Both the position numbers and the translations under genes were made by a program. Below, one piece after another: positions 154 through 14,158 of a DNA stretch of 14,158 nt; position 1 is the first letter of the stretch, and the number at the start of each line of letters is the position of its first letter. The notes below the pieces were generated by a model. The model saw only the letters and a program-made list of their open reading frames with translations, did not search any database and had not been told where the DNA came from. Source of the stretch: an uncultured Clostridia bacterium (GTDB lineage Bacteria; Bacillota; Clostridia; Lachnospirales; Anaerotignaceae); the NCBI GenBank assembly GCA_958420075.1, contig CATZIM010000023.1:1-14158 (forward strand), read 5' to 3'.

Positions 154-196
154 AAAAATACCCTTGCTGCAATAAATTTACAGCAAGGGTATTTTT
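154..196 (-). terminator. Rho-independent terminator of the hsdR unit (probably bidirectional)
   Basis: Positions 154-169 and 181-196 form a perfect 16-bp inverted repeat with an 11-nt loop. The GC core is CCCTTGCTG/CAGCAAGGG, flanked by A5 on one side and T5 on the other, so it has the form of an intrinsic terminator on either strand. On the minus strand it overlaps the stop codon of the HsdR C-terminal frame (195-197). Confidence 0.85.
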
Positions 197-728
197 ATAA
201 TGCATTGATCTTCACGGACTCAATGGTTTCTATTAAATTTTTTCTTGTATTTTCATCAAAAAGACGAATAAACTTTACAGGATGATCAAAGGGTGCTCTC
301 GTTAAAATCATTGTATCATCCATGTATCCATTTTTCTCAATATGGTGAATGATCTTCCGCACAAAATTGATTTGCTGAGCATTTAAGGATTCATCATTGA
401 TAAATTTCGAAAATGCAGCCAAAGCCGCTTCATGATCCAGCTTTGCTACTTTCCGTACCAGCAAGCCAAAAGGTGTATCTGGATAAGCTTTATCATAATC
501 CTCTTTGCTGCCCAATTCATGGGTAAAAATTCGCTCTAATTCCTGATAATCACCCTCTGCAAGACGAATATTATGGGTTAATTTATGAATTGCCAGAGTA
601 TCTCCATGTTCCAAAATATACTTTTCTGCTTTTTTCCGATATTCATCTGCTGTAAAACCATGAACTTCAAAATCCTTTCCTTCTGTTGACTCCAGAATTG
701 GATCTGTCAAATTGGTAATTACAATTTT
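195..728 (-). pseudogene. hsdR: C-terminal domain of type I restriction subunit HsdR, out of frame with the main body
   Basis: This open frame continues the HsdR protein encoded at 719-3301 and corresponds to the C-terminal helical domain typical of EcoEI-type R subunits. The sequence between the two parts is contiguous. Adding one A to the A7 run (725-731, T7 on the plus strand) gives an uninterrupted reading ...SAKKIVITNLTDPILE.... The only internal start (TTG at 708-710) has no ribosome binding site, so an independent gene is unlikely. The stop is TAA at 195-197, inside a terminator stem. The shift could be a real deletion, an assembly error in a homopolymer, or a programmed -1 event, because the run sits in the A AAA AAA phase with a zero-frame stop two codons later. 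Confidence 0.8.
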
Positions 729-3301
729 TTTGCACTTTGATCATCTACAAGGAACTTCATCAGCTCACGCAATTCTTTACGGATAGATTCCAAAGAAAGT
801 AAATCTACCGATTCCCAGAAATCCTCGTGCTGCACACTTTGAATCAAAGGTAACTTTTCCTTCACTTGTGGAATAGTAGCTTTTTTTAGCAGCATATTGG
901 CGGTTTCGCCTAATTGTCTTCGAGCTGTTTTTTCCTGTTTGGATGCATTGATGCGCGCCAGCATCAAACCATACATAAAGTTATCAAATCGTTTTGCTGC
1001 TTCATCGTCTTCCTGTAAGAATACCAGAGGTGCGATCTCTTTGATCAATTCATCATGTTTGTCCCCCTCAATTACGTCAAAAGCTTCACGTTTTTTATAG
1101 ACCTCTACATACTTCCGTTTTACGCGAACAGACAGCAGCTTCTCATTTAATGCAGTCACCTGTTCATGACAGGTATCTGCCATTTCTTTTCGCCAATCTT
1201 GATAGGCTTCTTCTGCATAAGCTGCATCCTGCAATTTTTCTAGCAGCATGATTTGTTTCCCAAAAATATTTTCAGCCAAAGTTTTTGTTTCTTTGGCTTC
1301 ATAGCCATTTGGTTTCATACGGAAAAAATCGAAATTCAGACAATAGTCAAAAATGAGGAATCGTTTCTTACCGGTGTATTCTCCATCAATCTGATCCTGA
1401 CAAATCAAATCAGGTGCCAATCTGGTTCCTCGTCCAATCATCTGCCAGAACTTTGTTTTCGAATATACCTTCTTAAAAAACACCAAATTGACACAGGTTG
1501 GCACATCTACGCCTGTATCCATCATATCCACAGAAACGACAATTTGCGGATCTCCATCCGGTTTCTTGAAATCGTCTATTACACTCTGGGCATAATTGTC
1601 ATCACAGATAACCCGCTGCATAAGCTTCCCCTTATATTGCGGATAAAGTGCGTCAAACCGTTCCCGAATAAATTCCGCATGGCGTTTATTCTGGGCGAAA
1701 ATAATGGTTTTCCCGATACGGTCACCACCATCAACCTTGATTCCCCGCTCCATCAAATCTTCCAGAACCTGATCTACAGTACCTTGATTGAAAATAAACC
1801 GATTCAGGTTCTCCGGCAGAATCACACCTGGAATAGACCCATCCTCTTCTTCAAAATCTTCTTCAAAGCGTTCCTTATCTTTTTCTGACAAATCATCATA
1901 ATGAATCCCTTTTACAGTGAAATCTGTTTTCACTTCATAATTGTAAAAAGGCACCAGCACATGGTCTACCTCTACAGCTGTATGATAATCGTATGCATAG
2001 GTTGGGGTGTCATTTTTACATTCAAAGAAATCGTATGTATTATGCGCCACATCGTCTTTCGGTGTAGCTGTCAGACCCACTAAAATCCCATCAAAATATT
2101 CAAAAATTGCACGATATTTTTTGAATATACTTCGATGGCTTTCATCAATGATAATCAGATCAAAATGCGCAGGCGTGAATATCAAATTGCCCTCTGCATT
2201 TCGCGCCTCTGTAATGGCATTGAGCATTGTGGGATATGTAGAAAATACAATTCTGGCATTTCTGTCTTCTTTATTGATGCAGAGATTACACAAAGACATC
2301 CCCGGCAAATAGTTTTGAAAATCTTCTTTTGCCTGCTTTACCAGAGCTGTGCGATCTGCCAGAAAAAGTACATTTGTCACATAGCCGCCTCTGCTCAGTA
2401 CATCTGTCAAACTGGAGGCTGTTCTTGTTTTTCCAGTTCCTGTTGCCATGACCAGCAAATGTTTTCGTTTTCCCATCATGATTTTCTCACAAACGGCACG
2501 AATAGCTTCCTTCTGATAATACCGATCTGTGATTTTATCATCAATTTGGATTTTCGTCAGATCTTTACGCATGGTACGGCGATCCATCAGTTTTTGCAGA
2601 TCACCTTTGCTGAATACACTGACAACTGGATGTTCTGTTCCGCTCACATCATCCCAGAAATTTGTATCAAAACCATTTGTCGTAAACATCATGGGTTTTC
2701 TGCCATATTTCCGTTCCAAACACTCTGCATACAGCATTGCCTGTTTTCTTCCGATCTTCGGGTCTTTGCTGGTACGCTTTGCCTCTATGACAGCCAAGGG
2801 CATGCCATCCTTGCCCAAAAGAACATAGTCCACATAGCCTTTTTGACCGGGTTTATTTTCCATGTCCGTCACTTCGTATTCTACTGCAACATCAGCATCT
2901 GGTCCTTCCAGTTTCCACCCCATCAGTTTCAAATCCAAGTCGATATACTGTTTGCGGGTAGCATATTCAGAAAGGTCATTGGGCGCAAAGTGGCGTGTTT
3001 TCTGGTTGGTTTCTTTCTTTTGGGCAAAACTCCCCTGCAGTTCTTCCAACTGTTTCAACAAACCTTCGATTTGAGCATCTTTTTCCTGCAACAGACTTTC
3101 CTGTTTACGGATTTTTTCCACATCTACGGAAGTTTTTTCTGTAGGAATCTTAGATGGGTCAAAGGTGCGTTCCTCATAGTCTGCGCCATAGCAATAATCC
3201 AGCCACTGGACAAATGCAAACAAATTGCGCAAGGAGGACAGAGCTTCCTGACGGGACACCTGATTGCCTGTATGTACCGCGTGATTTCCCAGCTTGACCA
3301 C
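719..3301 (-). CDS. hsdR: Type I restriction enzyme R subunit (HsdR), main nuclease-helicase body; truncated at both ends
   Basis: HsdR is the motor and nuclease of type I restriction enzymes: it translocates DNA with ATP and cuts it, working in a complex with HsdM and HsdS. The frame shows, in order: a DUF4145-like N-terminal part (to about residue 45), a charged coiled-coil stretch (about 60-100), a PD-(D/E)XK nuclease core with D158 and E173-x-K175, Walker A ATGTGKT (286-292), a DESH box (386-389), a TAT motif (411-413) and helicase motif VI QMIGRGTR (620-627). Motifs look intact. The apparent start, GTG at 3299-3301, is only the first start-like codon: the frame stays HsdR-like further upstream (IDPTVWLQIRYVV), so the true N-terminus is lost to lesions at 3304-3441. 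The 3' end stops early at 719-721 after an A7 run. Full-length relatives are about 1000 residues or more. No hsdM or hsdS is present in the window. Confidence 0.9.
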   Translation of the reverse strand: MVKLGNHAVHTGNQVSRQEALSSLRNLFAFVQWLDYCYGADYEERTFDPSKIPTEKTSVDVEKIRKQESLLQEKDAQIEGLLKQLEELQGSFAQKKETNQKTRHFAPNDLSEYATRKQYIDLDLKLMGWKLEGPDADVAVEYEVTDMENKPGQKGYVDYVLLGKDGMPLAVIEAKRTSKDPKIGRKQAMLYAECLERKYGRKPMMFTTNGFDTNFWDDVSGTEHPVVSVFSKGDLQKLMDRRTMRKDLTKIQIDDKITDRYYQKEAIRAVCEKIMMGKRKHLLVMATGTGKTRTASSLTDVLSRGGYVTNVLFLADRTALVKQAKEDFQNYLPGMSLCNLCINKEDRNARIVFSTYPTMLNAITEARNAEGNLIFTPAHFDLIIIDESHRSIFKKYRAIFEYFDGILVGLTATPKDDVAHNTYDFFECKNDTPTYAYDYHTAVEVDHVLVPFYNYEVKTDFTVKGIHYDDLSEKDKERFEEDFEEEDGSIPGVILPENLNRFIFNQGTVDQVLEDLMERGIKVDGGDRIGKTIIFAQNKRHAEFIRERFDALYPQYKGKLMQRVICDDNYAQSVIDDFKKPDGDPQIVVSVDMMDTGVDVPTCVNLVFFKKVYSKTKFWQMIGRGTRLAPDLICQDQIDGEYTGKKRFLIFDYCLNFDFFRMKPNGYEAKETKTLAENIFGKQIMLLEKLQDAAYAEEAYQDWRKEMADTCHEQVTALNEKLLSVRVKRKYVEVYKKREAFDVIEGDKHDELIKEIAPLVFLQEDDEAAKRFDNFMYGLMLARINASKQEKTARRQLGETANMLLKKATIPQVKEKLPLIQSVQHEDFWESVDLLSLESIRKELRELMKFLVDDQSAKKL

Positions 3302-3806: not shown

Positions 3807-3835
3807 TTGTTAGCAAATATCAGTGTCATTATCAT
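3807..3835 (+). promoter_or_regulatory. Possible promoter ahead of HTH gene
   Basis: TTGTTA (3807-3812) and TATCAT (3830-3835) are separated by 17 bases, a sigma-A-like arrangement with 4/6 matches in each box. Predicted transcription would start near 3842, immediately before the hairpin at 3848-3894. By-eye call only. Confidence 0.35.
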
Positions 3836-3847
3836 CTGTCTTAGGTC

Positions 3848-3894
3848 AAAAGACCACACAGAAAGAGGAAAAATCCTCTCTGTGTGGTCTTTTT
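3848..3894 (+). terminator. Strong intrinsic terminator / possible attenuator before the HTH ribosome binding site
   Basis: AAAAGACCACACAGA...GAGGA (3848-3869) pairs with TCCTCTCTGTGTGGTCTTTT (3874-3893), with only a two-base bulge, a short A-rich loop and a T-run at the end. The Shine-Dalgarno GGAGGA of the next gene begins at 3901, so the terminator lies in the leader of that gene. It may simply insulate the gene from upstream transcription, or act as an attenuator. Confidence 0.75.
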
Positions 3895-3912
3895 CTGTCT
3901 GGAGGAATGCTT

Positions 3913-4608
3913 ATGAAATTAACACGACCGTTTGTCATGGTGGAAAAAGATGTCCTCTTTTCCCCGGAATTGACTGCCCTTGAAAAATTAGTTTATTGCG
4001 TTTTATGCGCTTTTTCTTTTAATATTACTCGTTCCTGCTACCCATCCTATAACACCATTGCAGAGAAAGTCGGTTGTTCTAAAAAGACTGCTATACAGTG
4101 TGTCGCTTCGCTGTGTGATAAAGGTTGGATGCAGAAAATGGAACAACGGACGAAGAAAGGCGGTCATCGCAGCAATATGTATTTTCTTGTTCTGTCACCA
4201 GAAAAACAATACCTCTACCCTAGCCACACAAAACCGGAATCCCCTTCTCCATCGGAAAAATCAGATTCTTCGTCTGATGGCGAACCATATTGGGGTTATA
4301 CAGAACGGTTGGAAGATGTCAAGAAAAGAATTGACTATGATTACTTTGCGGAACATATGCCAGATCAGCTTTATATGGTGGATTTCCTTTGCCAGTGTAT
4401 CCCAGAGCTTTATGATACTTCTTTCCCTGAAGACAGAAAACTGCTGAACAAAGTCAGCGGTCTGGATATTATCGGATTTTTGCACTATACAGCTGGTCGG
4501 AATTATTCTGGAGTGAAAAATATGAAGGCTTATTTGAAAACTATGTTTCTGGAATATCTACGGAACAAACAGCTGCTTCTGGCAACGGCAGTCCCACCCA
4601 AGATATGA
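3913..4608 (+). CDS. Helix-turn-helix (HTH_36-like) protein, possible replication or element-control protein
   Basis: This 231-residue protein has a winged-helix-type N-terminal half. A helix with TALEKLVYCVLCAFSF (about residues 21-36) is followed by YNTIAEKVGCSKKTAIQCVASL (about 46-67), the usual helix-turn-helix layout of proteins that choose between primed and unprimed DNA sites, and then a basic wing (QRTKKGGHRSN). The middle (about 105-125) is a Pro/Ser-rich linker. The C-terminal half is helical and unrecognised. I chose ATG at 3913 because GGAGGA (3901-3906) sits 6 bases upstream; the open frame extends further back but through the terminator hairpin. Proteins of this shape are common in integrative elements and plasmids of clostridia, where they are called replication initiators or regulators. 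That role is inference here. Confidence 0.75.
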   Translation: MKLTRPFVMVEKDVLFSPELTALEKLVYCVLCAFSFNITRSCYPSYNTIAEKVGCSKKTAIQCVASLCDKGWMQKMEQRTKKGGHRSNMYFLVLSPEKQYLYPSHTKPESPSPSEKSDSSSDGEPYWGYTERLEDVKKRIDYDYFAEHMPDQLYMVDFLCQCIPELYDTSFPEDRKLLNKVSGLDIIGFLHYTAGRNYSGVKNMKAYLKTMFLEYLRNKQLLLATAVPPKI

Positions 4609-5824: not shown

Positions 5825-7066
5825 ATGGCAAAACAGAAGAAACCCATACATCGGGTACAAATGACAGAGGGAAAACGAAACATTATTCATCAGCTCATGG
5901 AAGAATACGATATTCAGACAGCTGAGGATATTCAGGAAGCTCTAAAAGACCTTCTGGGCGGAACCATCAAAGAAATGATGGAAGCAGAAATGGAGGATCA
6001 TCTCGGATATGAAAAATCTGAGCGTTCTGACAATGATGATTACCGAAATGGGTATAAACGCAAACGTATCAACAGCAGTTATGGTTCTATGGAAATTGAG
6101 GTTCCACAGGATCGTAAATCAACCTTTCAGCCGCAAGTAGTCAAAAAGCGCCAGAAAGACATCTCCGATATTGATCAGAAGATCATCTCTATGTATGCCA
6201 AAGGAATGACGACCAGACAGATATCTGAAACCATCGAAGATATTTACGGTTTTGAAACTTCGGAAGGATTCATTTCTGATGTAACAGATAAAATCCTCCC
6301 TCAGATTGAAGATTGGCAGAACCGCCCGTTAGATGAAGTATATCCAATTCTATTTATCGATGCAATCCACTATTCTGTCCGGGATAACGGTGTCATTCGC
6401 AAATTGGCGGCATATGTAATTCTTGGAATTAATACAGCAGGAAAAAAAGAAGTGCTTACCATTCAGGTTGGTGATAACGAAAACTCTAAATACTGGCTGT
6501 CTGTCTTAAATGAACTGAAAAACAGAGGGGTAAAAGATATCCTGATCCTTTGTGCTGATGGTCTGTCTGGAATCAAAGAAGCTATTTCGGCTGCTTTTCC
6601 GAAAACAGAATATCAACGCTGTATTGTCCATCAGGTAAGAAACACTCTGAAATATGTTCCAGATAAAGACAGGAAAGCCTTTGCAACGGATTTGAAAACC
6701 ATCTATCAGGCACCGGACGAAAAGAAAGCTCTGGCAGCCCTTGAACAAGTAACAGAGAAATGGACACCAAAATATCCGAATTCCATGAAACGCTGGAAAG
6801 ATAACTGGGATGCCATTTCTCCAATTTTCAAATTTTCGGCAGATGTCCGAAAGGTCATATACACGACCAATGCCATAGAATCTCTGAATTCCACCTATCG
6901 GAGATTAAACCAGCAAAGAAGCGTATTTCCAAGCGATACAGCATTGCTGAAAGCCCTGTATCTGGCAACTTTTGAAGCCACAAAAAAATGGACAACCACC
7001 ATCCGGAACTGGGGTCAGGTCTACGGAGAATTAAGTATTATGTATGAAGGACGGCGTCCAGAATAA
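5825..7066 (+). CDS. IS256-family (Mutator-type) DDE transposase
   Basis: This 413-residue protein has the normal length for the family and appears intact. The catalytic triad is visible as D179 (LFIDAIHY), D245 (CADGLSG) and E352 (TTNAIESLN), with the family C266-x2-H269 signature between the second Asp and the Glu. The N-terminal half holds the helix-turn-helix DNA-binding part (around MYAKGMTTRQISETIEDIYG, residues 123-142). AGGAGG (5809-5814) supports ATG 5825. It catalyses cut-and-copy movement of its IS through a circular intermediate in known members. It resembles the second transposase in this window throughout (long identical blocks such as KIISMYAKGMTT and LKNRGV-DIL) but is clearly a different element, not a recent duplicate. 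Confidence 0.95.
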   Translation: MAKQKKPIHRVQMTEGKRNIIHQLMEEYDIQTAEDIQEALKDLLGGTIKEMMEAEMEDHLGYEKSERSDNDDYRNGYKRKRINSSYGSMEIEVPQDRKSTFQPQVVKKRQKDISDIDQKIISMYAKGMTTRQISETIEDIYGFETSEGFISDVTDKILPQIEDWQNRPLDEVYPILFIDAIHYSVRDNGVIRKLAAYVILGINTAGKKEVLTIQVGDNENSKYWLSVLNELKNRGVKDILILCADGLSGIKEAISAAFPKTEYQRCIVHQVRNTLKYVPDKDRKAFATDLKTIYQAPDEKKALAALEQVTEKWTPKYPNSMKRWKDNWDAISPIFKFSADVRKVIYTTNAIESLNSTYRRLNQQRSVFPSDTALLKALYLATFEATKKWTTTIRNWGQVYGELSIMYEGRRPE

Positions 7067-7335: not shown

Positions 7336-8583
7336 TTATAATCCGGATAGTCTTTCTTCAAAGAAAATCTCCAGCTGCGAATGGATCTGCCCCCAATCCT
7401 GTCGGTGACCTGTCCATTTTTTCGTGATATCCATCATGGTCAGATACAGCATTTTCAGGAGACTCTCATCGGAAGGAAACACTGTCTTGGCTTTTGTGAC
7501 CTTCCGGAGCTGGCGGTTAAATCCCTCGATGGCATTGGTAGTATAGATTAAACGGCGGACTGCTTCTGGATACTTGAAATAGGTCGAAAGATTGGTCCAG
7601 TTATCTTTCCAAGATTTCGCTATTTTGGGGTATTTTCCGCTCCATTTGTCATCAAAGCTGTCCAGTTCTGCTAATGCGATTTCTTCCGTTGGAGCCGCAT
7701 ATACACGTTTTAGATCGGCCATCAGCGGCTTGAGCTCCTTGTAGGAAACAAACTTCGTTGTATTACGGATCTGATGGATGATGCACTGCTGAATCTCTGT
7801 CTGGGGAAAGACAGCCTCGATTGCCTGGGGAAATCCTGTCAGCCCATCTACACATGCGATCAGGATATCTTCCACGCCACGATTTTTCAGACCATTCAGG
7901 ATGGAGAGCCAAAATTTTGCACTTTCGTTTTGCCCGACATACATACCGAGCACGTCTTTATATCCCTCCATATCAATCCCGATGGCAATATAAACCGCAC
8001 GTTTTACAATCCGTCCTTCGTTACGTACATGATAGTGGATCGCATCCATAAAAACAACTGCATAGATCTCTTCTAAAGGTCTTTCCTGCCATTCTTTCAC
8101 AATGGGAAGGATCTTGTCTGTGATCCTGCTGATGGTACTGTCAGAAATTTCGATATCGTATAGTTCCCGCATATGACTTTCGATATCATTCGTAGTCATT
8201 CCTTTGGCATACATGGAAATGATTTTTTCTTCCATATCCTGGGTGACCGTATTCTGGTATTTCTTTACAATCTGTGGTTCAAACTCACCCTTCCGATCAC
8301 GGGGGATATCGATTTCCATATCGCCATAACTGGTATGCATTATCTTTTGAGAATGTCCATTTCTGGAATTATCCGTTTCCTTGTTACGATAGTCATACTT
8401 AGAATAACCTAATTCCTCGTCCATCTCCTGATCCAGGGCACTTTCCAGAATGATGGACATCATATCCCTCATGATGGAATTTACATCTGTTCCGTCTTTT
8501 ACCTTAACATTGTTTTCTTTCATGTAGTTGCTCATTATTTTCCGAAGAGCTGCTTTTTGTGGGGTATCCTTTTTTCTTGCCAT
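7336..8583 (-). CDS. IS256-family (Mutator-type) DDE transposase
   Basis: I take ATG at 8581-8583 as the start (415 residues) because GGAGG lies 8 bases upstream. An in-frame TTG at 8596-8598 overlaps that ribosome binding site and is unlikely. The catalytic residues are D180 (VVFMDAIHY), D246 (CVDGLTG) and E353 (TTNAIEGFN), with C-x2-H in QQCIIHQ. Length and motifs suggest an active enzyme. It faces the first transposase convergently, across its own 170-bp 3' end. Sequence similarity to the first transposase is moderate, so the two are relatives of the same family rather than copies. Confidence 0.95.
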   Translation of the reverse strand: MARKKDTPQKAALRKIMSNYMKENNVKVKDGTDVNSIMRDMMSIILESALDQEMDEELGYSKYDYRNKETDNSRNGHSQKIMHTSYGDMEIDIPRDRKGEFEPQIVKKYQNTVTQDMEEKIISMYAKGMTTNDIESHMRELYDIEISDSTISRITDKILPIVKEWQERPLEEIYAVVFMDAIHYHVRNEGRIVKRAVYIAIGIDMEGYKDVLGMYVGQNESAKFWLSILNGLKNRGVEDILIACVDGLTGFPQAIEAVFPQTEIQQCIIHQIRNTTKFVSYKELKPLMADLKRVYAAPTEEIALAELDSFDDKWSGKYPKIAKSWKDNWTNLSTYFKYPEAVRRLIYTTNAIEGFNRQLRKVTKAKTVFPSDESLLKMLYLTMMDITKKWTGHRQDWGQIHSQLEIFFEERLSGL

Positions 8584-8655
8584 AAAATAAACCTCCAAAC
8601 TGGTAAGTCTATCTTACATCAGTTTGAAGGTTTACACAAACTTTGGGATACTCCT

Positions 8656-8671
8656 GAGTGCTTCATTTCAA
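8656..8671. repeat. 16-bp direct repeat bordering the second IS (right copy)
   Basis: Exact second copy of GAGTGCTTCATTTCAA (7151-7166), directly adjoining the right end of IS 2. Confidence 0.7.
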
Positions 8672-8725
8672 AGCATTCCACCCAGTCTTATCATAGAAGA
8701 ATCTTATTTACAGACTTTTCTTCAT
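8672..8725. repeat. Unclassified repeat, copy 1 (right part; left part at 7131-7166)
   Basis: Positions 8674-8725 match 9063-9114 at 46 of 52 bases without gaps (CATTCCACC...CTTATCATAGAAGAATC...CAT). The left part of the same repeat is at 7131-7166, separated by IS 2. The rejoined copy is about 90 bp against 87 bp for copy 2. I do not recognise the parent element. Confidence 0.7.
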
Positions 8726-8730
8726 ACCCT

Positions 8731-8918
8731 CCCATTGAGCGCCTCAATCGTGAGATCAAACGCCGAACAAAAGCAATTGGTGCTTTCCCCGATGGGCAGA
8801 GTGCTCTGATGCTCGTATGTGCCAGATTGCGCCATGTAGCAGCAACGAACTAGAGAGCCAGACATTACACCTTTTCAAAGCAGAGGATGATCTGCTGTCT
8901 GATATCATAGCCGGTTGA
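8731..8918 (+). pseudogene. C-terminal fragment of a third IS256-family transposase, decayed
   Basis: Frame 8731-8853 reads PIERLNREIKRRTKAIGAFPDG then QSALMLVCARLRHVAATN before TAG. ERLNREIKRRT with the following PDG...ALMLVCARLRHVA is the typical region around and after the catalytic Glu of a different IS256 subgroup from the two intact elements. The TAG (8851-8853) falls where relatives usually have Trp. Another frame just after it reads QTLHLFKAEDDLLSDIIAG to a TGA at 8916-8918, a plausible original tail, which implies a further frameshift. All of the N-terminal four-fifths is missing, and the fragment starts directly after repeat copy 1. The open frame to the left of 8731 is not transposase sequence. 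Confidence 0.75.
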
Positions 8919-9202: not shown

Positions 9203-10471
9203 TTATTCTTCCGAAATAATTTCATTTAAAATTCCTAACACATCTTCATTTTTTTGCATATCCCAGACACTGTGTAATTCATTGACCAGTTTTTGTGTTT
9301 CTCTATTCGTTAGTATTTTGGGATCTATAATATAAATTAATAACAATTCAACTAATTTAGAATTTCCCATTATCATTTTTTTTTGAATATTGTCCCATAA
9401 AATTCTTCTCCACAATTTATGTTGTAACCACATCAACCGCTCAGGAAATAAATTAAGTATTTTTTCGTAGTACATATCAGTATTTTCTCGAACTCGCACT
9501 ATAACCTTCGCAAACTGAACCAAAGAAATTGGTCTGAAAAAAATGTGACCTCCTTCTTTATCCCTAAATCTTCCTACGGTACCATCTATATAATCATTAA
9601 TTTCCTCGCACCGCAACATAATTGACTTCCAAAACTCATAACATTCTTTTGTAAAATCATTAACAACTTTTTCTGAAGGTCTATGTCTTAAATATTCATT
9701 TATTTTTTTTCTACCTTTAATTTGTTTCCCATCTAAACCAATTACATCAATGTCCTTCACGAACATCCATAATAATTCTTTGTTACATTCATAATAAGCA
9801 ATAATTGTAGTTAGTGCAGTACTATTTGTCTCAGGAATCGCTTTATTTTTTGAATCTAAAATACGATCTTTCAAAAACAAATCTGTGTCATCAATTAAAT
9901 TTCTAGATGCTATTGCTACTACATCATCTTCATCTAGCGCAATAATATCTCTTAAAGATACAGGTTTAGCATATCTATTTAGCGTACTAAACATTCTCCT
10001 TGTTCTTTGCATCCCAACTTCATCCTTTGAATGTCCAATAAAAATTACTGGTACTCTCTCTTTTCCTAAAATTGGTTTATGTTCCAATGCCTTCTTTATG
10101 CCTGCAACTCTATGTTGCCCATCTACTGGGAAAATCTTTTCTTTTCCAGATAAAGTTAATATTCCTAAAGGAGAATCACCATCTTCAAATTCACTAATAC
10201 GAATTTCATTCCACTCTGGTTCACCATCATATACCGCAAGAATTAGAGAATTAAAAAATCTCTCTTTCTGTGTTTCTAAGTAGTTAGCTATATTTTTATA
10301 ATTGTCAGTTACACTTCTTTGTATCATTTCTGATAAAAACTTGGACTTATGTAATTCATCATTAATTGGACTTATATAATCTAAAATATCTTGAAAACTT
10401 AATGAGCTTACATAATATATCCATATACCCATTTGAGATCTAATTGCTGGTACTCTAATCATATTCCCCAT
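9203..10471 (-). CDS. DGQHR-domain protein, DndB-like
   Basis: The 422-residue protein carries the defining D117-G-Q-H-R121 motif, in the context KIFPVDGQHRVAGIKKAL, followed by a FSTLNRYAKPVSLRD segment (about 161-174). Both are characteristic of the DGQHR/DndB family. Known DndB proteins act as DNA-binding regulators of phosphorothioate (Dnd) DNA-modification operons. The C-terminal half is helical and unrecognised. The gene follows the GIY-YIG gene after 12 bases, with the ribosome binding site GGAG right after that stop codon, so the two are probably translated from one message. No dndA, C, D or E is present in the window, so a role in sulfur modification is not supported. A regulator or DNA-sensing part of a defence system is more likely, by inference. 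Confidence 0.8.
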   Translation of the reverse strand: MGNMIRVPAIRSQMGIWIYYVSSLSFQDILDYISPINDELHKSKFLSEMIQRSVTDNYKNIANYLETQKERFFNSLILAVYDGEPEWNEIRISEFEDGDSPLGILTLSGKEKIFPVDGQHRVAGIKKALEHKPILGKERVPVIFIGHSKDEVGMQRTRRMFSTLNRYAKPVSLRDIIALDEDDVVAIASRNLIDDTDLFLKDRILDSKNKAIPETNSTALTTIIAYYECNKELLWMFVKDIDVIGLDGKQIKGRKKINEYLRHRPSEKVVNDFTKECYEFWKSIMLRCEEINDYIDGTVGRFRDKEGGHIFFRPISLVQFAKVIVRVRENTDMYYEKILNLFPERLMWLQHKLWRRILWDNIQKKMIMGNSKLVELLLIYIIDPKILTNRETQKLVNELHSVWDMQKNEDVLGILNEIISEE

Positions 10472-10483
10472 ATTATTTTCTCC

Positions 10484-10999
10484 TTAATTAAAAGCCTTCT
10501 GACTTGGCAATACTCTTATATACTCATCCGGATATTGAGTATTACACGGAGCCTTAATAACTCTATTTAACTCTCTTTCCACTTTTTCAATTAATAAGTC
10601 ATCTTTTATTGGCAAATAGTAAAAATATAATGCTTTTCCCCATAGTTCTCTCATCATTGCTACTTTAGGTCTTGTATCCCTCATATAGGATTTACACCTT
10701 TTTCTTAAACTAAATCCTTTCCCTCTTCTTGCTCTCCCAATATACATAATATACAAATGCAGTCCAGGTATTAAATCGGGTCGGAGAACAAAAATATAAA
10801 TACCTCCCACATCATCAGGTACTGTCGCAACTGCCTCATTCAATGCATTCCCTTCATCATTTAAAAACTTTATATTTTCCCATTCTCCTGAAACAATGTC
10901 TTTAACCTCTTCATCCATACTTTCCCATTGATCAATATTTAACTCAAATGACAGGGTAAGTACCTTATTTCGACAAAATATATCGACAATATCCGACAT
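10484..10999 (-). CDS. GIY-YIG endonuclease-like protein
   Basis: I place the start at ATG 10997-10999 (171 residues) because AGGAGGAAGAGG lies directly upstream. The longer frame from a TTG at 11026 would read through that ribosome binding site. The nuclease core is visible as G66-I-Y68 (VGGIYIF), Y86-I-G88 (LYIMYIGRA), conserved basic residues R99/R101 on the following helix (FSLRKRCKSY) and a late Glu (E141 or E143) before the APCN turn (150-153), which is the usual E...P..N ending. The first 60 residues form an unrecognised N-terminal part. GIY-YIG enzymes cut DNA using one metal ion; no homing or UvrC features are seen. It is paired with the DndB-like gene, so it is probably the effector of that pair. 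Catalytic residues appear complete. Confidence 0.8.
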   Translation of the reverse strand: MSDIVDIFCRNKVLTLSFELNIDQWESMDEEVKDIVSGEWENIKFLNDEGNALNEAVATVPDDVGGIYIFVLRPDLIPGLHLYIMYIGRARRGKGFSLRKRCKSYMRDTRPKVAMMRELWGKALYFYYLPIKDDLLIEKVERELNRVIKAPCNTQYPDEYIRVLPSQKAFN

Positions 11000-11044
11000 A
11001 TTACCTCTTCCTCCTAACAAAGCCAATTTTTATAATAGCAGCTG

Positions 11045-11090
11045 CTCATTATTTATTGTTCTATATGTCATACCTATCAAAGATAGCTAT
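11045..11090 (-). promoter_or_regulatory. Promoter with overlapping operator-like dyad for the GIY-YIG/DndB-like pair
   Basis: On the minus strand TTGATA (11080-11075) and AATAAA (11057-11052) are spaced by 17 bases (5/6 and 4/6 matches to the consensus). The -35 box lies within a symmetrical sequence at 11070-11090 whose core is CTATC-AAA-GATAG with matching ATA/TAT ends, as expected for a repressor site. It sits in the only sizeable gap (11000-11219) of the minus-strand gene set. No clear terminator was found in that gap. Confidence 0.4.
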
Positions 11091-11219
11091 GTTTTTTGTT
11101 CCAAACCTTGTTTATCAACCGTGATCTAATACTTTTGCTCTCAAAATTACTATATCAAAATAATATCAAACAAAATACACCTCTTATCTATCTCTAAACA
11201 TTGAAAAACCTTAGAACAC

Positions 11220-12134
11220 TCATAATTTAATATTTAAACTTGCTAATCTAACTCTTTGTGAATAATTTGGTCTATCGATTATTATCTCTTCCATCTTAAG
11301 CGCTGCACTCCATAAAAGAAGATTTGTAAGCATATTCTTTATATCCCTTCTATATGGTTTTGGGTCCGAAACCAATGTACTATGTAATTTTTCTGACAGC
11401 GCTCCGAAAAACATGCAACCATTATTTTCCTTTAATGTTGTTAAAAGCCATAAATATGCATTACTCCAACGAAATGCTTCCTTCAATTGCTCGATATCTC
11501 CAAAATACGTCTCATCTAAAAAGGAAATATATTCTCCTTCACGGATTAAGAAATTTTCTGGCAATTCATATGAAAATAATGCATCTATATGCGGATGAAA
11601 CAGCTTTGTTATTGAATAATCCCAGCAAGGATTTCTAGCTCCATTAAGCTCATCGAACCTAACTATTTGTTTTTTCATATTTTCTAAAAGTTTATAATCA
11701 ATATGAATAGCATCATTAAACAGTTGACCAATTTTTTCTACATCCTTTGCCTCTATATCCACTAGCGTTGCCATTTCTATGTTGCCATTTTTTCCAATAC
11801 TTAGCCCTGACTTTGTTGCATTTGCGCTACCAACAAGTCCTCTCTTATTATCAACAATATACGTCTTAGCATGCAAATCAAAACGAACGTACACACTCCA
11901 CCCATTCTTTAAACCACTTTCAAGGACAGAAAAGTCTGTGCTGCCTTTTAATATATCATCCATTCTAAATCTAACAAGAAGTTTTTTTTCATAAACTTCC
12001 TTCCCAATACATGAATTCAAATATAAAAAAGATGATTCTTTACAATATGCAGTAATAATTTGAACTGATGTAGACGCATTTTTTAATTCTTTTTTTATAC
12101 AAGCAAGTATTTCGTTAGAGAATAAAATCGACAT
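11220..12134 (-). CDS. Phospholipase D-like (HKD) nuclease
   Basis: The 304-residue protein has one PLD active-site motif, H88-A-K90-(x4)-D95, followed by G102-S-A-N105 (DLHAKTYIVDNKRGLVGSANAT) and a later conserved Glu (E120, NIEM). That is the single-motif arrangement of bacterial PLD nucleases of the BfiI/Nuc type, which work as dimers. No signal peptide or membrane segment is present, so it acts in the cytoplasm, most likely on DNA. The C-terminal 150 residues are helical and unrecognised. Its start is 9 bases after the stop of the GHKL ATPase gene, with AGGGTGAT as ribosome binding site, so the two are cotranscribed. PLD nucleases paired with SF2 helicases occur in DISARM, but the DISARM DUF1998 partner and methyltransferase are not seen here. 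Confidence 0.85.
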   Translation of the reverse strand: MSILFSNEILACIKKELKNASTSVQIITAYCKESSFLYLNSCIGKEVYEKKLLVRFRMDDILKGSTDFSVLESGLKNGWSVYVRFDLHAKTYIVDNKRGLVGSANATKSGLSIGKNGNIEMATLVDIEAKDVEKIGQLFNDAIHIDYKLLENMKKQIVRFDELNGARNPCWDYSITKLFHPHIDALFSYELPENFLIREGEYISFLDETYFGDIEQLKEAFRWSNAYLWLLTTLKENNGCMFFGALSEKLHSTLVSDPKPYRRDIKNMLTNLLLWSAALKMEEIIIDRPNYSQRVRLASLNIKL

Positions 12135-12143
12135 ATAATCACC

Positions 12144-13943
12144 CTATTTCTTTGCGAAGCTTTGTTGCTCATTAATATATCTACGCAACTTCTCATTCCA
12201 TATAGCTATTAGATTATCATTCTGTTCTTCTTGAGACATTTTTGTTTCATCAACAGCTTTAACTAATGATGCAACAAACAACTCAAATGCTGTTTTGGTA
12301 TCTATAGATTCAAAGATTTCGCATAATGTTGTTTTATAAAAAAGATGATCCATATTAAAAGTTACCAGGCAACTCCCTAACTCAAAAGAATAATCAAATA
12401 AACCTGCTGTTTTTCCTAGGTTTTTATGAACAACGTTCACTTTGTTATTCATATAACTGTTTACATCTTCTTCTGTAGGATTTTCAATTCCTTGTTCTTT
12501 AAGTTCCTCTTTTGTCTTTTCCACCAATGTTTCATGTGGAGTATTTTCTCTAACCTCATCTGTTGCACTTTCCGACGTGCCCTCCTGGTTTTCTTCTGCT
12601 AAATTTATAATCTGAGTTGTTGGTGGAGTGATATCCTTTACCGTTCTCGCATTTTCTCTCGTCTTTTTATTAGCAGCATACATAGCAGAAATTGTATCAT
12701 GAACAATATTGTATAATTGTGCCCAAACAGGCTTTATTTCCTCATCTATATAATCATTTTGCTCGACACGTCGAAGTTCGACATGCTGTTTATTATTTGC
12801 TACTCCAAATGCCTCATCTAATTCTGGATTAAATCTAATTTCACACCCCCACCATCTATGCTCTGGTTGGTTAACATTTTCATAAAAATCAAATTGACCA
12901 AAATCAATTTCACGATTTGCTCTCACAATTGAAATACCTTCAAGTTCTTTTACATGCTTCCCTAACTGAGTTTGACCAGGATTTCCAGAAATTGCAGTTT
13001 TATCATAGAAAATATTTTTCACAATAGAAAACTTGATTTCCACCTTCGATTCTTTTGTTTCTCCTGTTTCTGGATCTAAATATTTAATAGAATATGGTAT
13101 AATTCCATCCGGATACTTAGAATTTGTATAAGCTTCAAAAACTGGAACAGTACAGTTAATGTTGGTTCTAGGAGAAATAACACCTGGATTATCAGGATTT
13201 CCCAAAACATAATTATTGGGCATAAGCATTAAAGGATCATTAGGCATAATCTCATGCGTATAATCCTGATTTTCATTATGAATCAATCGTATACTACTTC
13301 TCCCCTCACTTATAAAGTATCTAAACTTCTGTCCTAATGCGAAGTCAAGCTTCTTAAACAAAAAATTTACTGTTTTAGGTATTACTCTATCACATTTTTT
13401 CCATATTACAAATGTTCCATGCTGAGTAAAATCATACGTCTTATCACCTGCATCGGAAATCACTTTATAGGTCAAATATTTTTGATATTTTTCAGGGATT
13501 TCTGAAGAAATAGGATCCTCGATTTCTGTCTGTTCTTCATTCTTAATTTTATCAATATCCAAAAATACTTTTTTACAATTATCATATCCTCCTTGCCAAG
13601 AATAAACATCAACAGCGGGACAAGCATAAAGAGATGCTTGTGGCAGCCCTACTCCAAATCGACCTAGTCCTTTTCGATCAGTTCTTGTTGAATAGCCAAT
13701 TCCAAGACATCCTTCTATCTCCTCATTAGTCATCCCACTCCCATCATCTAAAAATACTATTTCTGATATATTATTTCTCCCAGTTCTAGGATTATATTCC
13801 TCTGACACTATTACCAAAATATTCTGAGCACCAGCTTGGACTGAATTATCTATAATTTCAGCCATAGCACATTCAATATTTTTATAACCAGTATTACGAA
13901 GGGCATCTCCCATCGTTTTAATTACAAATATATCTTTTGCCAT
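12144..13943 (-). CDS. GHKL ATPase (MutL/MORC/Hsp90-like)
   Basis: This 599-residue protein has an N-terminal GHKL ATP-binding fold. The N-box is E29-IID32-N33 (AEIIDNSVQAGA), G1 is D66-D-G-S-G-M71, and G2 is G92-L-G-R-F-G-V-G-L100. A GTFVIW strand (about 176-181) then marks the start of the transducer part. Residues about 425-490 form a charged, Glu/Thr-rich linker, and the last 110 residues make a separate helical C-terminal domain. In this family ATP binding closes a dimer around a partner or DNA. Prokaryotic MutL/MORC-like GHKL proteins of this kind occur in restriction-like neighbourhoods with helicases and nucleases. It lies 13 bases after the helicase and 9 before the PLD gene, with GGGAGAG as ribosome binding site. 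A histidine kinase is unlikely because no H-box domain is present. Confidence 0.85.
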   Translation of the reverse strand: MAKDIFVIKTMGDALRNTGYKNIECAMAEIIDNSVQAGAQNILVIVSEEYNPRTGRNNISEIVFLDDGSGMTNEEIEGCLGIGYSTRTDRKGLGRFGVGLPQASLYACPAVDVYSWQGGYDNCKKVFLDIDKIKNEEQTEIEDPISSEIPEKYQKYLTYKVISDAGDKTYDFTQHGTFVIWKKCDRVIPKTVNFLFKKLDFALGQKFRYFISEGRSSIRLIHNENQDYTHEIMPNDPLMLMPNNYVLGNPDNPGVISPRTNINCTVPVFEAYTNSKYPDGIIPYSIKYLDPETGETKESKVEIKFSIVKNIFYDKTAISGNPGQTQLGKHVKELEGISIVRANREIDFGQFDFYENVNQPEHRWWGCEIRFNPELDEAFGVANNKQHVELRRVEQNDYIDEEIKPVWAQLYNIVHDTISAMYAANKKTRENARTVKDITPPTTQIINLAEENQEGTSESATDEVRENTPHETLVEKTKEELKEQGIENPTEEDVNSYMNNKVNVVHKNLGKTAGLFDYSFELGSCLVTFNMDHLFYKTTLCEIFESIDTKTAFELFVASLVKAVDETKMSQEEQNDNLIAIWNEKLRRYINEQQSFAKK

Positions 13944-13956
13944 AATATCTCTCCCG

Positions 13957-14158
13957 TTAACTCCAATAATTATTAAAATGTGAAAAAGCCATATTTTCGT
14001 TATATTGTTGCAAATTATCTTTTACATCAACTAATAAGCAGATCTCATTTCCTCCCATTTGCGGACCTCTCAAACCACGTCCTATCATCTGACTATATAA
14101 CACAATAGATTGCGTTGGTCTAGCAATAAAAACACATTCTATATTCGTAGCATCAAAT
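13957..14158 (-). CDS. Superfamily 2 helicase, C-terminal end (5' part outside the window)
   Basis: The frame is open from the window edge to TAA at 13957-13959 and gives 66 residues, FDATNIECVFIARPTQSIVL followed by YSQMIGRGLRGPQMGG and a tail ending NNYWS. ARPT (12-15) and the motif VI block QMIGRGLRGP (23-32) are the conserved end of RecA domain 2 of DEAD/DEAH-type helicases, including those related to restriction subunits and RadD-like proteins. Motif VI arginines R27 and R30 are intact. The short tail after motif VI means there is no large C-terminal domain. It is the first gene seen of the minus-strand set and is closely spaced to the GHKL gene. The N-terminal domains, and any upstream genes, are not visible. 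Confidence 0.85.
   Translation of the reverse strand, partial: FDATNIECVFIARPTQSIVLYSQMIGRGLRGPQMGGNEICLLVDVKDNLQQYNENMAFSHFNNYWS

What the first reader, a model, noticed from the sequence alone, without database searches (positions are those of the whole stretch)
9203..14158. Candidate undescribed defence operon: SF2 helicase, GHKL ATPase, PLD nuclease, GIY-YIG nuclease and DndB-like protein
Five same-strand genes (13-, 9- and 12-bp gaps within groups) combine a DNA motor, an ATP-driven clamp/switch, two unrelated nucleases and a DGQHR protein, next to a dead restriction subunit and an IS nest. The motifs are read directly from the sequence. The defence role follows from what these families do elsewhere (MutL/MORC-like GHKL proteins in restriction neighbourhoods, PLD with helicase in DISARM, DndB in Dnd systems). 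I know of no named system with this exact gene set.
Basis: partly seen in the sequence, partly recalled or inferred. Interest (0 to 1): 0.85.

Follow-up and report, generated by a model that had tools for sequence, protein, structure and literature searches.

The report
Effector genes of DNA-sulfur phage defence
These five genes look like the cutting half of a bacterial defence system that marks its own DNA with sulfur, and relatives suggest that such systems are assembled from interchangeable cutting cassettes, two of which I found under no published name.

Summary
The five genes are real: SF2-helicase C-terminus (cut by the window end), GHKL ATPase, PLD nuclease, GIY-YIG nuclease and DGQHR (DndB-family) protein. 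They are not a self-contained operon. In 26 of 26 chromosomal relatives fetched with the GHKL protein, helicase-GHKL-PLD lies behind sspB and sspC, with sspD and sspA in 25 of 26 each: the DNA phosphorothioation (PT) machinery. ssp genes also lie within about 20 kb of helicase-GHKL in 13 of the 14 best plasmid hits (of 37; PLD recognisable in 11). The triad meets no test for SspFGH, Pbe or BREX-4. GIY+DGQHR is a separate module: 3 of 26 relatives carry it; others hold DUF262 proteins or PbeA/PbeC in that slot; on plasmids it also sits beside SspFGH and DndBCDE. Edges of exchange are sharp: L003 and L022 are 92.7% identical through sspD-sspA and diverge at the helicase; L009/L011/L012 are 79-82% identical to the end of PLD, then carry three different modules. 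Best reading: a PT-dependent restriction arm plus a second, two-gene PT-sensing nuclease like DndI/SspE. Function, and ssp genes in this genome, are inferred.

The parts
13957..14158 (-). C-terminal 66 residues of an SF2 (RadD/ResIII-type) helicase, cut by the window edge
   Evidence: RadD 2.7e-9; 66-85% identical to the helicase end in 26 of 26 relatives; most intact relatives are 557-619 aa long
12144..13943 (-). GHKL (HATPase_c_3) ATPase, 599 aa, MORC/SMCHD1/MutL-like fold
   Evidence: 1.4e-23; structure model matched to SMCHD1, MORC, MutL, Hsp90 chains; 26 genomic relatives
11220..12134 (-). PLD-family nuclease, 304 aa, one HKD motif (H88-K90-D95)
   Evidence: PLDc_2 2.8e-10; H, K and D invariant in 31 of 31 aligned sequences: window, 25 of the 26 loci, 5 plasmids
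10484..10999 (-). GIY-YIG nuclease, 171 aa (start corrected to ATG 10999)
9203..10471 (-). DGQHR-domain (DndB-family, ParB/Srx-type) protein, 422 aa, DGQHR at residues 117-121
   Evidence: DndB 7.5e-27; DGQHR domain 95.3 bits over cut-off 58.85; DndB equivalog cut-off not met

Best explanation
The window holds the restriction half of an Ssp-type DNA phosphorothioation (PT) defence system. Beyond the window edge, SspA, SspB, SspC and SspD (inferred from relatives) would place a sulfur in the backbone of host DNA at a short motif. The helicase-GHKL-PLD triad is the main effector: the SF2 helicase moves on DNA, the GHKL dimer closes on DNA as an ATP-gated clamp, and the PLD nuclease (one HKD per chain, so probably a dimer) cuts or nicks DNA that lacks the mark. 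GIY+DGQHR is a second, exchangeable effector: the DGQHR protein, of the same ParB-like superfamily as the DUF262 sensor of SspE and DndI, senses PT and hydrolyses NTP, and so controls the separate GIY-YIG nuclease. It would be a two-gene counterpart of SspE/DndI. Shown here: gene identities, synteny with ssp genes in relatives, cassette exchange, co-inheritance of helicase with GHKL, and use of the same slot by DUF262 and Pbe modules. Inferred: ssp genes and PT marking in this genome, the order of events, PT sensing by the DGQHR protein, and antiphage activity.
For:: 26 of 26 GHKL relatives have helicase end, GHKL and PLD; SspB and SspC families in 26 of 26, SspD in 25 (the L019 stretch ends first), SspA in 25 (L006 is degraded); identities of these families in L011. 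DUF4007/SspB in 26 of 26 host genomes, against 22 of 348 in a Lachnospiraceae sample; the GHKL protein is in 2 of 348, both among the 22; 13 of the 14 top-ranked plasmid relatives (of 37 matched) have ssp genes within about 20 kb; no SspF/G/H hit for the window's triad proteins, while the L042 trio scores 786, 722 and 2429 bits; no PglZ on the core contig in any of 26 genomes; the slot holds GmrSD_N proteins or PbeA+PbeC in other loci. GIY beside a DGQHR hit in 5 of 5 plasmid records matched; the three contexts read (L039, L042, L043) are PT loci; cassette exchange and co-inheritance. Papers: DUF262 proteins and DndB in one ParB-like superfamily (PMC11662687, passages); DGQHR/DUF262 similarity (PMC4619093, passages).
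Against: The window contains no ssp gene and no genome is held for it, so the modification arm is inferred. GIY+DGQHR is in only 3 of 26 close relatives; its absence from the 6 loci with DUF262 modules is expected by chance with these numbers. The distant GHKL relative in Nocardiopsis (L040) has no ssp genes within 12 kb, and 23 weaker plasmid records were not read. In Agrobacterium and Aminobacter the third gene is an unmatched 359-aa protein, not a recognisable PLD. In several plasmids the ssp genes are on the other strand and so not in one operon with the triad (L033, L037, L039). Canonical DndB is a transcriptional regulator (PMC4507180), so the DGQHR protein could be one too; 15 of 20 plasmid DGQHR records have no GIY hit. 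No PT measurement and no phage assay for this set came up in my searches.
Confidence: 0.74

Rival explanations
1. The DGQHR protein is a transcriptional regulator of the locus, like DndB of Salmonella, and the GIY protein is an unrelated passenger nuclease.
For: DndB regulates its own gene and dndCDE in Salmonella (PMC4507180, passages); the protein is in the DndB family by Pfam; most plasmid DGQHR records (15 of 20) have no GIY hit.
Against: The window-type DGQHR protein is directly downstream of the GIY gene in the 7 loci examined (window, L003, L008, L023, L039, L042, L043), including Rhizobium NXC14, where a separate annotated dndB also exists. It fails the DndB ortholog cut-off. The five closest plasmid DGQHR hits are the five with GIY. 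In L003, L008, L023 and the window the pair sits in a slot used by DUF262 proteins in other loci.
Confidence: 0.15
2. helicase-GHKL-PLD is an independent defence system that merely shares defence islands with Ssp systems.
For: Helicase-GHKL and the Ssp genes have incongruent trees. Iyer et al. 2008 describe GHKL (MORC/paraMORC) proteins with SF2 helicases in methylation-type R-M operons (PMC2292703, passages and section 5). MzaB is the nearest named model of the GHKL protein. The Nocardiopsis relative has no ssp genes nearby.
Against: 26 of 26 and 13 of 14 linkage with ssp genes, with the same order in the 26 apart from insertions in L006, L007, L010 and L019. In L003/L022 the swap begins at the sspA/helicase boundary, so an exchanged cassette is put back behind an ssp arm. 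PLD follows the Ssp arm better than the helicase-GHKL pair.
Confidence: 0.15
3. A variant of BREX type 4, whose modification proteins (BrxP, DUF4007, BrxC) are homologous.
For: The PAPS reductase of L011 scores best with BrxP (266 bits, against SspD 44.8) and carries an Fe-S region, as described for BREX 4 (PMC12839542, passages).
Against: PglZ, retained in all type-4 taxa of that paper, is not on the contig of the core in any of 26 genomes; hits over the cut-off lie on other contigs in 2 of 26. The large ATPase scores best as SspC (340 bits, against BrxC 84).
Confidence: 0.06

Closest known systems
SspABCD-SspE (phosphorothioation-sensing defence)
   Same: Homologous modification genes in relatives; SspE pairs a ParB-superfamily NTPase domain with a nuclease, as the DGQHR and GIY proteins may do in two genes. 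L009 and L019 carry a long DUF262-type protein in the same locus.
   Different: Main effector is helicase-GHKL-PLD; the second effector uses DGQHR instead of DGQQR/DUF262 and GIY-YIG instead of HNH.
SspABCD-SspFGH
   Same: A three-gene restriction arm beside sspBCD.
   Different: The window's triad proteins hit no PADLOC SspF/G/H model; SspF has a Walker A motif and SspH an FtsK-like end (PMC8092258, passages). In Agrobacterium (L031, L088) an FtsK-containing trio and helicase-GHKL lie side by side near one sspABCD set.
IscS-DndBCDE-DndI
   Same: DndI is a ParB-superfamily NTPase fused to a nuclease, which senses PT and spares self-DNA (PMC11662687, passages); functional model for GIY+DGQHR.
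   Different: Fused DUF262-HNH protein, and Dnd modification instead of Ssp.
DndCDEA-PbeABCD
   Same: PLD and SF2 helicase used by a PT system.
   Different: PbeA fuses PLD and helicase and works with SMC-like PbeC (PMC6459918, passages); here PLD is separate and the partner is a GHKL ATPase. L012 has PbeA and PbeC as an additional module behind the triad.
MORC/paraMORC R-M operons (Iyer et al. 2008); MZA (MzaB)
   Same: GHKL+S5-type ATPase with SF2 helicase and nucleases.
   Different: Iyer's operons are described with DNA methylases (PMC2292703, passages); the make-up of MZA is recalled. Here the modification genes of the relatives are phosphorothioation genes.

Membership tests
Ssp phosphorothioation system (SspABCD modification arm) | sspA/B/C/D beside the effector genes | not testable with these tools
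   Window ends inside the helicase and no genome is held. In relatives: B and C 26 of 26, D and A 25 of 26; DUF4007 in 26 of 26 genomes.
SspABCD-SspE | effector with DUF262 (DGQQR) + DUF1524 in one protein | tested here: not met
   None of the window's five proteins hits these Pfam families; the DGQHR protein matches DndB/DGQHR instead.
SspFGH | matches to SspF, SspG and SspH models | tested here: not met
   No such hit for the window's GHKL, PLD and helicase end, nor among the 25 of 33 families shown for the full helicase of L011. Positive comparison: L042 trio 786/722/2429 bits.
PbeABCD | PbeA with PLD-ResIII-Helicase_C in one protein plus SMC-like PbeC | tested here: not met
   PLD is a separate gene; full helicase of relative L011 scores 59.7 bits with PbeA against 711 for L012's PbeA; no PbeC hit among the window proteins scanned.
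BREX type 4 | PglZ (BrxZ) in the operon | tested here: not met
   Tested in relatives, not in the window's own genome: no PglZ on the core contig in any of 26 genomes; BrxL was not searched for.
DndB (ortholog) | TIGR03233 above cut-off (328 bits) | tested here: not met
   68.7 bits.
DGQHR-domain superfamily | TIGR03187 above cut-off and DGQHR motif | tested here: met
   95.3 bits against 58.85; motif at 117-121, present in 120 of the 120 listed relatives of 3511.
GIY-YIG nucleases | GIY-YIG fold and catalytic Tyr/Tyr/Arg/Glu/Asn (set recalled) | tested here: met
   Alignment and structural second look; but no Pfam hit and no Foldseek match at E <= 0.001. Activity not tested.
MZA (MzaB) | NCBIfam MzaB above cut-off (850 bits) | tested here: not met
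   59.6 bits.

The most novel reading that the evidence does not exclude
PT-based immunity in these loci is a plug-in architecture. One co-inherited modification arm (SspABCD) is combined with (i) a motor-clamp cassette (SF2 helicase + MORC-like GHKL ATPase) that is exchanged as a unit and that I found under no name, (ii) a PLD nuclease that follows the modification arm and so may carry mark or motif specificity, and (iii) a 3' slot taking interchangeable effectors: GmrSD/SspE-like proteins, DUF262+kinase, PbeA/PbeC, or a two-gene DGQHR-sensor/GIY-YIG nuclease that works like DndI and also plugs into SspFGH and Dnd systems.
Probability: 0.45. Interest if true: 0.8.

Novelty: new variant of a known kind. 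Interest (0 to 1): 0.66.

Why it matters
Wang et al. 2021 (PMC8092258, passages) counted 2,211 of 2,678 sspBCD loci with neither SspE nor SspFGH and named more diverse restriction partners as one of two possible reasons. The helicase-GHKL-PLD triad, found here beside ssp genes in several phyla, is a concrete candidate for part of that gap. It is compact and testable: modification arm plus three genes, with clear active sites. If GIY+DGQHR is a PT-sensing nuclease, it would show that PT sensing is not tied to DUF262-HNH fusions, and give part of the DndB/DGQHR family an effector role. It would also put a MORC-like ATPase, a relative of eukaryotic MORC proteins, under the control of a backbone sulfur mark.

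Tried and rejected
SspFGH identity: rejected by PADLOC models. BREX 4: rejected by absence of PglZ near the core in relatives. Phage or plasmid origin of the stretch: no near match in either collection; scans of the viral contigs for relatives of the GHKL and GIY proteins confirmed none (pattern-limited). One weak 108-residue match of the GHKL protein in a phage record was not followed. Internal promoter in the 220-bp gap: 1 promoter-like site, on the + strand, against a mean of 2.7 in shuffles; no terminator. Solved-structure sequence search: nothing for GIY (limit 1), PLD and DGQHR (limit 0.1), MORC4 at 0.079 for GHKL. Rfam: none. The GxWxYY motif near the N-terminus of the DGQHR protein (119 of the 120 listed relatives) was considered as a PT pocket like Y25/Y30 of DndI/SspE; the YY is also in the one canonical DndB compared, so this stays a guess. 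One search repeated the plasmid search with an alphaproteobacterial GHKL protein: 18 records at 1e-20; four of them (two Roseivivax, Leisingera, Rhodobacteraceae SC52) were not read. Literature for the combination: searches. None of the passages that I read describes helicase-GHKL-PLD with ssp; I read passages or single sections, no whole paper and no supplement, and subscription papers and most preprints are not held. PADLOC-DB is of 2023; DefenseFinder was not available.
Full report

What the operon belongs to. A scan of GTDB species genomes with the GHKL alignment gave 26 loci. All 26 have the helicase end directly before and the PLD gene directly after the GHKL gene. Clustering of their ORFs showed a conserved seven-gene set: a ~576-aa PAPS-reductase protein, a DUF4007 protein, a ~1196-aa ATPase, a cysteine desulfurase, helicase, GHKL, PLD. 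In L011 the first four match BrxP/SspD, SspB (188 bits), SspC (340 bits) and SspA/DndA: the DNA phosphorothioation arm. Presence: SspB and SspC 26 of 26, SspD 25 (L019's stretch ends first), SspA 25 (L006 is degraded). L004, L010 and L021 have split core genes; L006, L007, L010 and L019 have extra ORFs inside the set. All 26 host genomes have a DUF4007 hit over the cut-off, whereas a Lachnospiraceae sample has 22 of 348; the GHKL protein is in 2 of 348, both among those 22 and both already in my 26. The relatives are not independent draws, so no probability is attached.

Breadth. A tblastn of the GHKL protein against plasmids matched 37 records. I read the surroundings of the top 14, H1 to H14 (extended). 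Thirteen have ssp modification genes within about 20 kb, by annotation or tblastn; the exception is Nocardiopsis (L040, searched to 12 kb). They cover Cyanobacteriota, Bacteroidota, Pseudomonadota and Spirochaetota; the chromosomal set adds Bacillota and a Coriobacteriaceae genome. In several (L033, L037, L039) the ssp genes are on the opposite strand. PLD is recognisable in 11 of 14; in Agrobacterium and Aminobacter its place holds a 359-aa protein without Pfam hit. The other 23 of the 37 matched records were not read.

Not a named effector. PADLOC models for SspF, SspG and SspH give strong scores for the trio of Rhizobium K1/93 (786, 722, 2429 bits) but no hit for the window's triad proteins, nor among the 25 of 33 families shown for the full helicase of L011. 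PbeA is a PLD-helicase fusion (PMC6459918, passages); L012's PbeA scores 711 bits, L011's helicase 59.7. BREX 4 retains PglZ (PMC12839542, passages); PglZ hits over the cut-off occur in 2 of the 26 genomes and on other contigs than the core.

The GIY+DGQHR pair. It follows PLD in L003, L008, L023 and the window. In the Roseobacter plasmid the pair lies beside ssp genes and convergent to the triad (DGQHR 35% identity, 1e-66; GIY 26%, 2e-11). A search with that GIY protein hit 5 plasmid records, and in all 5 a DGQHR hit is adjacent; these are also the five closest of 20 DGQHR records, while the other 15, mostly annotated as dndB, have no GIY hit. Two of the contexts are of other kinds: next to SspFGH and SspBCD in Rhizobium K1/93 and next to DndBCDE in Rhizobium NXC14, which has its own annotated dndB. 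Two further Rhizobium records were not read. In cyanobacteria a diverged GIY-like protein (my reading of the motifs; no Pfam hit) precedes a long DGQHR protein between sspD and the helicase.

The slot. Behind PLD, or in L019 between sspA and helicase, 6 of 26 loci have DUF262-type proteins: L009 and L019 as one long protein, L011 and L022 with a kinase, L014 and L016 with a 251-aa protein (L016, L019 and L022 by cluster membership). L012 has PbeA and PbeC. The DUF1524 part of the L009 protein is weak (0.005, below cut-off) and PADLOC lists no SspE hit for it, so I call it GmrSD-like. Others have DUF3644 (L007, L021), SMC-like (L001), UvrD-like (L017), RT-Toprim-like (L025) or apparently unrelated genes. 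In 3 of 20 further Lachnospiraceae DUF4007 loci a homologue of the L009 protein lies directly behind sspA (L068-L070), and none of the 20 shows the triad, though several of these stretches are short. DUF262 proteins and DndB are placed in one ParB-like superfamily (PMC11662687 passages; PMC4619093 passages); SspE and DndI use DUF262 to sense PT and control an HNH nuclease (PMC9646914, PMC11662687, passages). This is the basis for proposing that DGQHR+GIY is a two-gene analogue.

Cassettes. On 21 of 26 loci (5 dropped: broken, split or missing genes) protein distance matrices correlate at 0.95-0.97 among SspA-D and at 0.96 between helicase and GHKL, but only 0.29-0.48 between these blocks; PLD correlates 0.63-0.73 with Ssp and 0.51-0.56 with helicase/GHKL. 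Even the weakest of these exceeds permutation (p 0.0025 or less). Tree tests agree: the Ssp alignment rejects the helicase-GHKL tree (8013 log units) and the reverse (3523); PLD rejects both, less so Ssp (172) than helicase-GHKL (391). Within blocks some smaller conflicts are also significant, e.g. the GHKL-only tree on the helicase alignment (38 units, AU 0.0003), the SspD tree on the joint Ssp alignment (224 units) and the joint Ssp tree on SspD (32 units, AU 0.034). DNA comparison shows the edges: L003 and L022 are 92.7% identical over 7.7 kb, from before sspD to about 60 bp before the end of sspA, then drop to short 68-70% patches in helicase and GHKL, have PLD at 71.6%, and carry GIY+DGQHR against DUF262+kinase. 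L009, L011 and L012 are 79-82% identical from sspD to the end of PLD, and no match continues behind it. L003 and L023 share most of PLD plus GIY+DGQHR at 78.7% while their ssp genes are at 66-70%. The window is itself a mosaic: its GHKL is nearest L001 (69%), its PLD nearest L009 (70%) but 37% to L001.

Mechanism. Committed reading as given in Best explanation. The helicase-GHKL co-inheritance suggests a physical motor-clamp pair; Iyer et al. 2008 proposed DNA looping for such GHKL proteins (PMC2292703, passages and section 5). That PLD follows the modification arm suggests contact with the mark or with SspB/C; this is inference.

Limits. The ssp arm of this very genome is not visible; chemistry, motif and antiphage activity are untested; counts come from one pattern-based genome scan and one plasmid collection; the defence library dates from 2023.

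Noticed in passing
window 195-3301 (-): Type I R-subunit-like protein (HSDR_N, ResIII, EcoEI_R_C) split into two ORFs in different frames; looks like a frameshifted remnant.
   Followed up: partly
window 5825-7066 (+), 7336-8598 (-), 8557-8853 (+): Two Mutator-family (IS256-type by recall) transposases in opposite orientation and a third fragment between the HsdR remnant and the PT effector genes.
   Followed up: partly
window 3823-4608 (+): HTH_36 protein with a weak DnaD_N match, of a kind often seen as a replication initiator in mobile elements (last part recalled).
   Followed up: no
L031, L088 (Agrobacterium plasmid NZ_CP039925.1): sspABCD, an FtsK-containing trio and helicase-GHKL-359aa in one stretch: apparently two restriction arms around one modification set; the trio was not scanned against SspFGH models.
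   Followed up: partly
L005:12818-15159: Behind PLD a second PAPS-reductase-family protein and a second, smaller HATPase_c_3 protein, resembling a further two-gene module.
   Followed up: no
L030, L038, L091 (cyanobacterial plasmids): Long (about 770 aa) DGQHR proteins with GIY-like partners among the ssp genes; annotated toxin-antitoxin pairs lie among the genes of L036 and L038.
   Followed up: partly
L003:14298-15143: PARG_cat_microb domain protein directly behind GIY+DGQHR.
   Followed up: no
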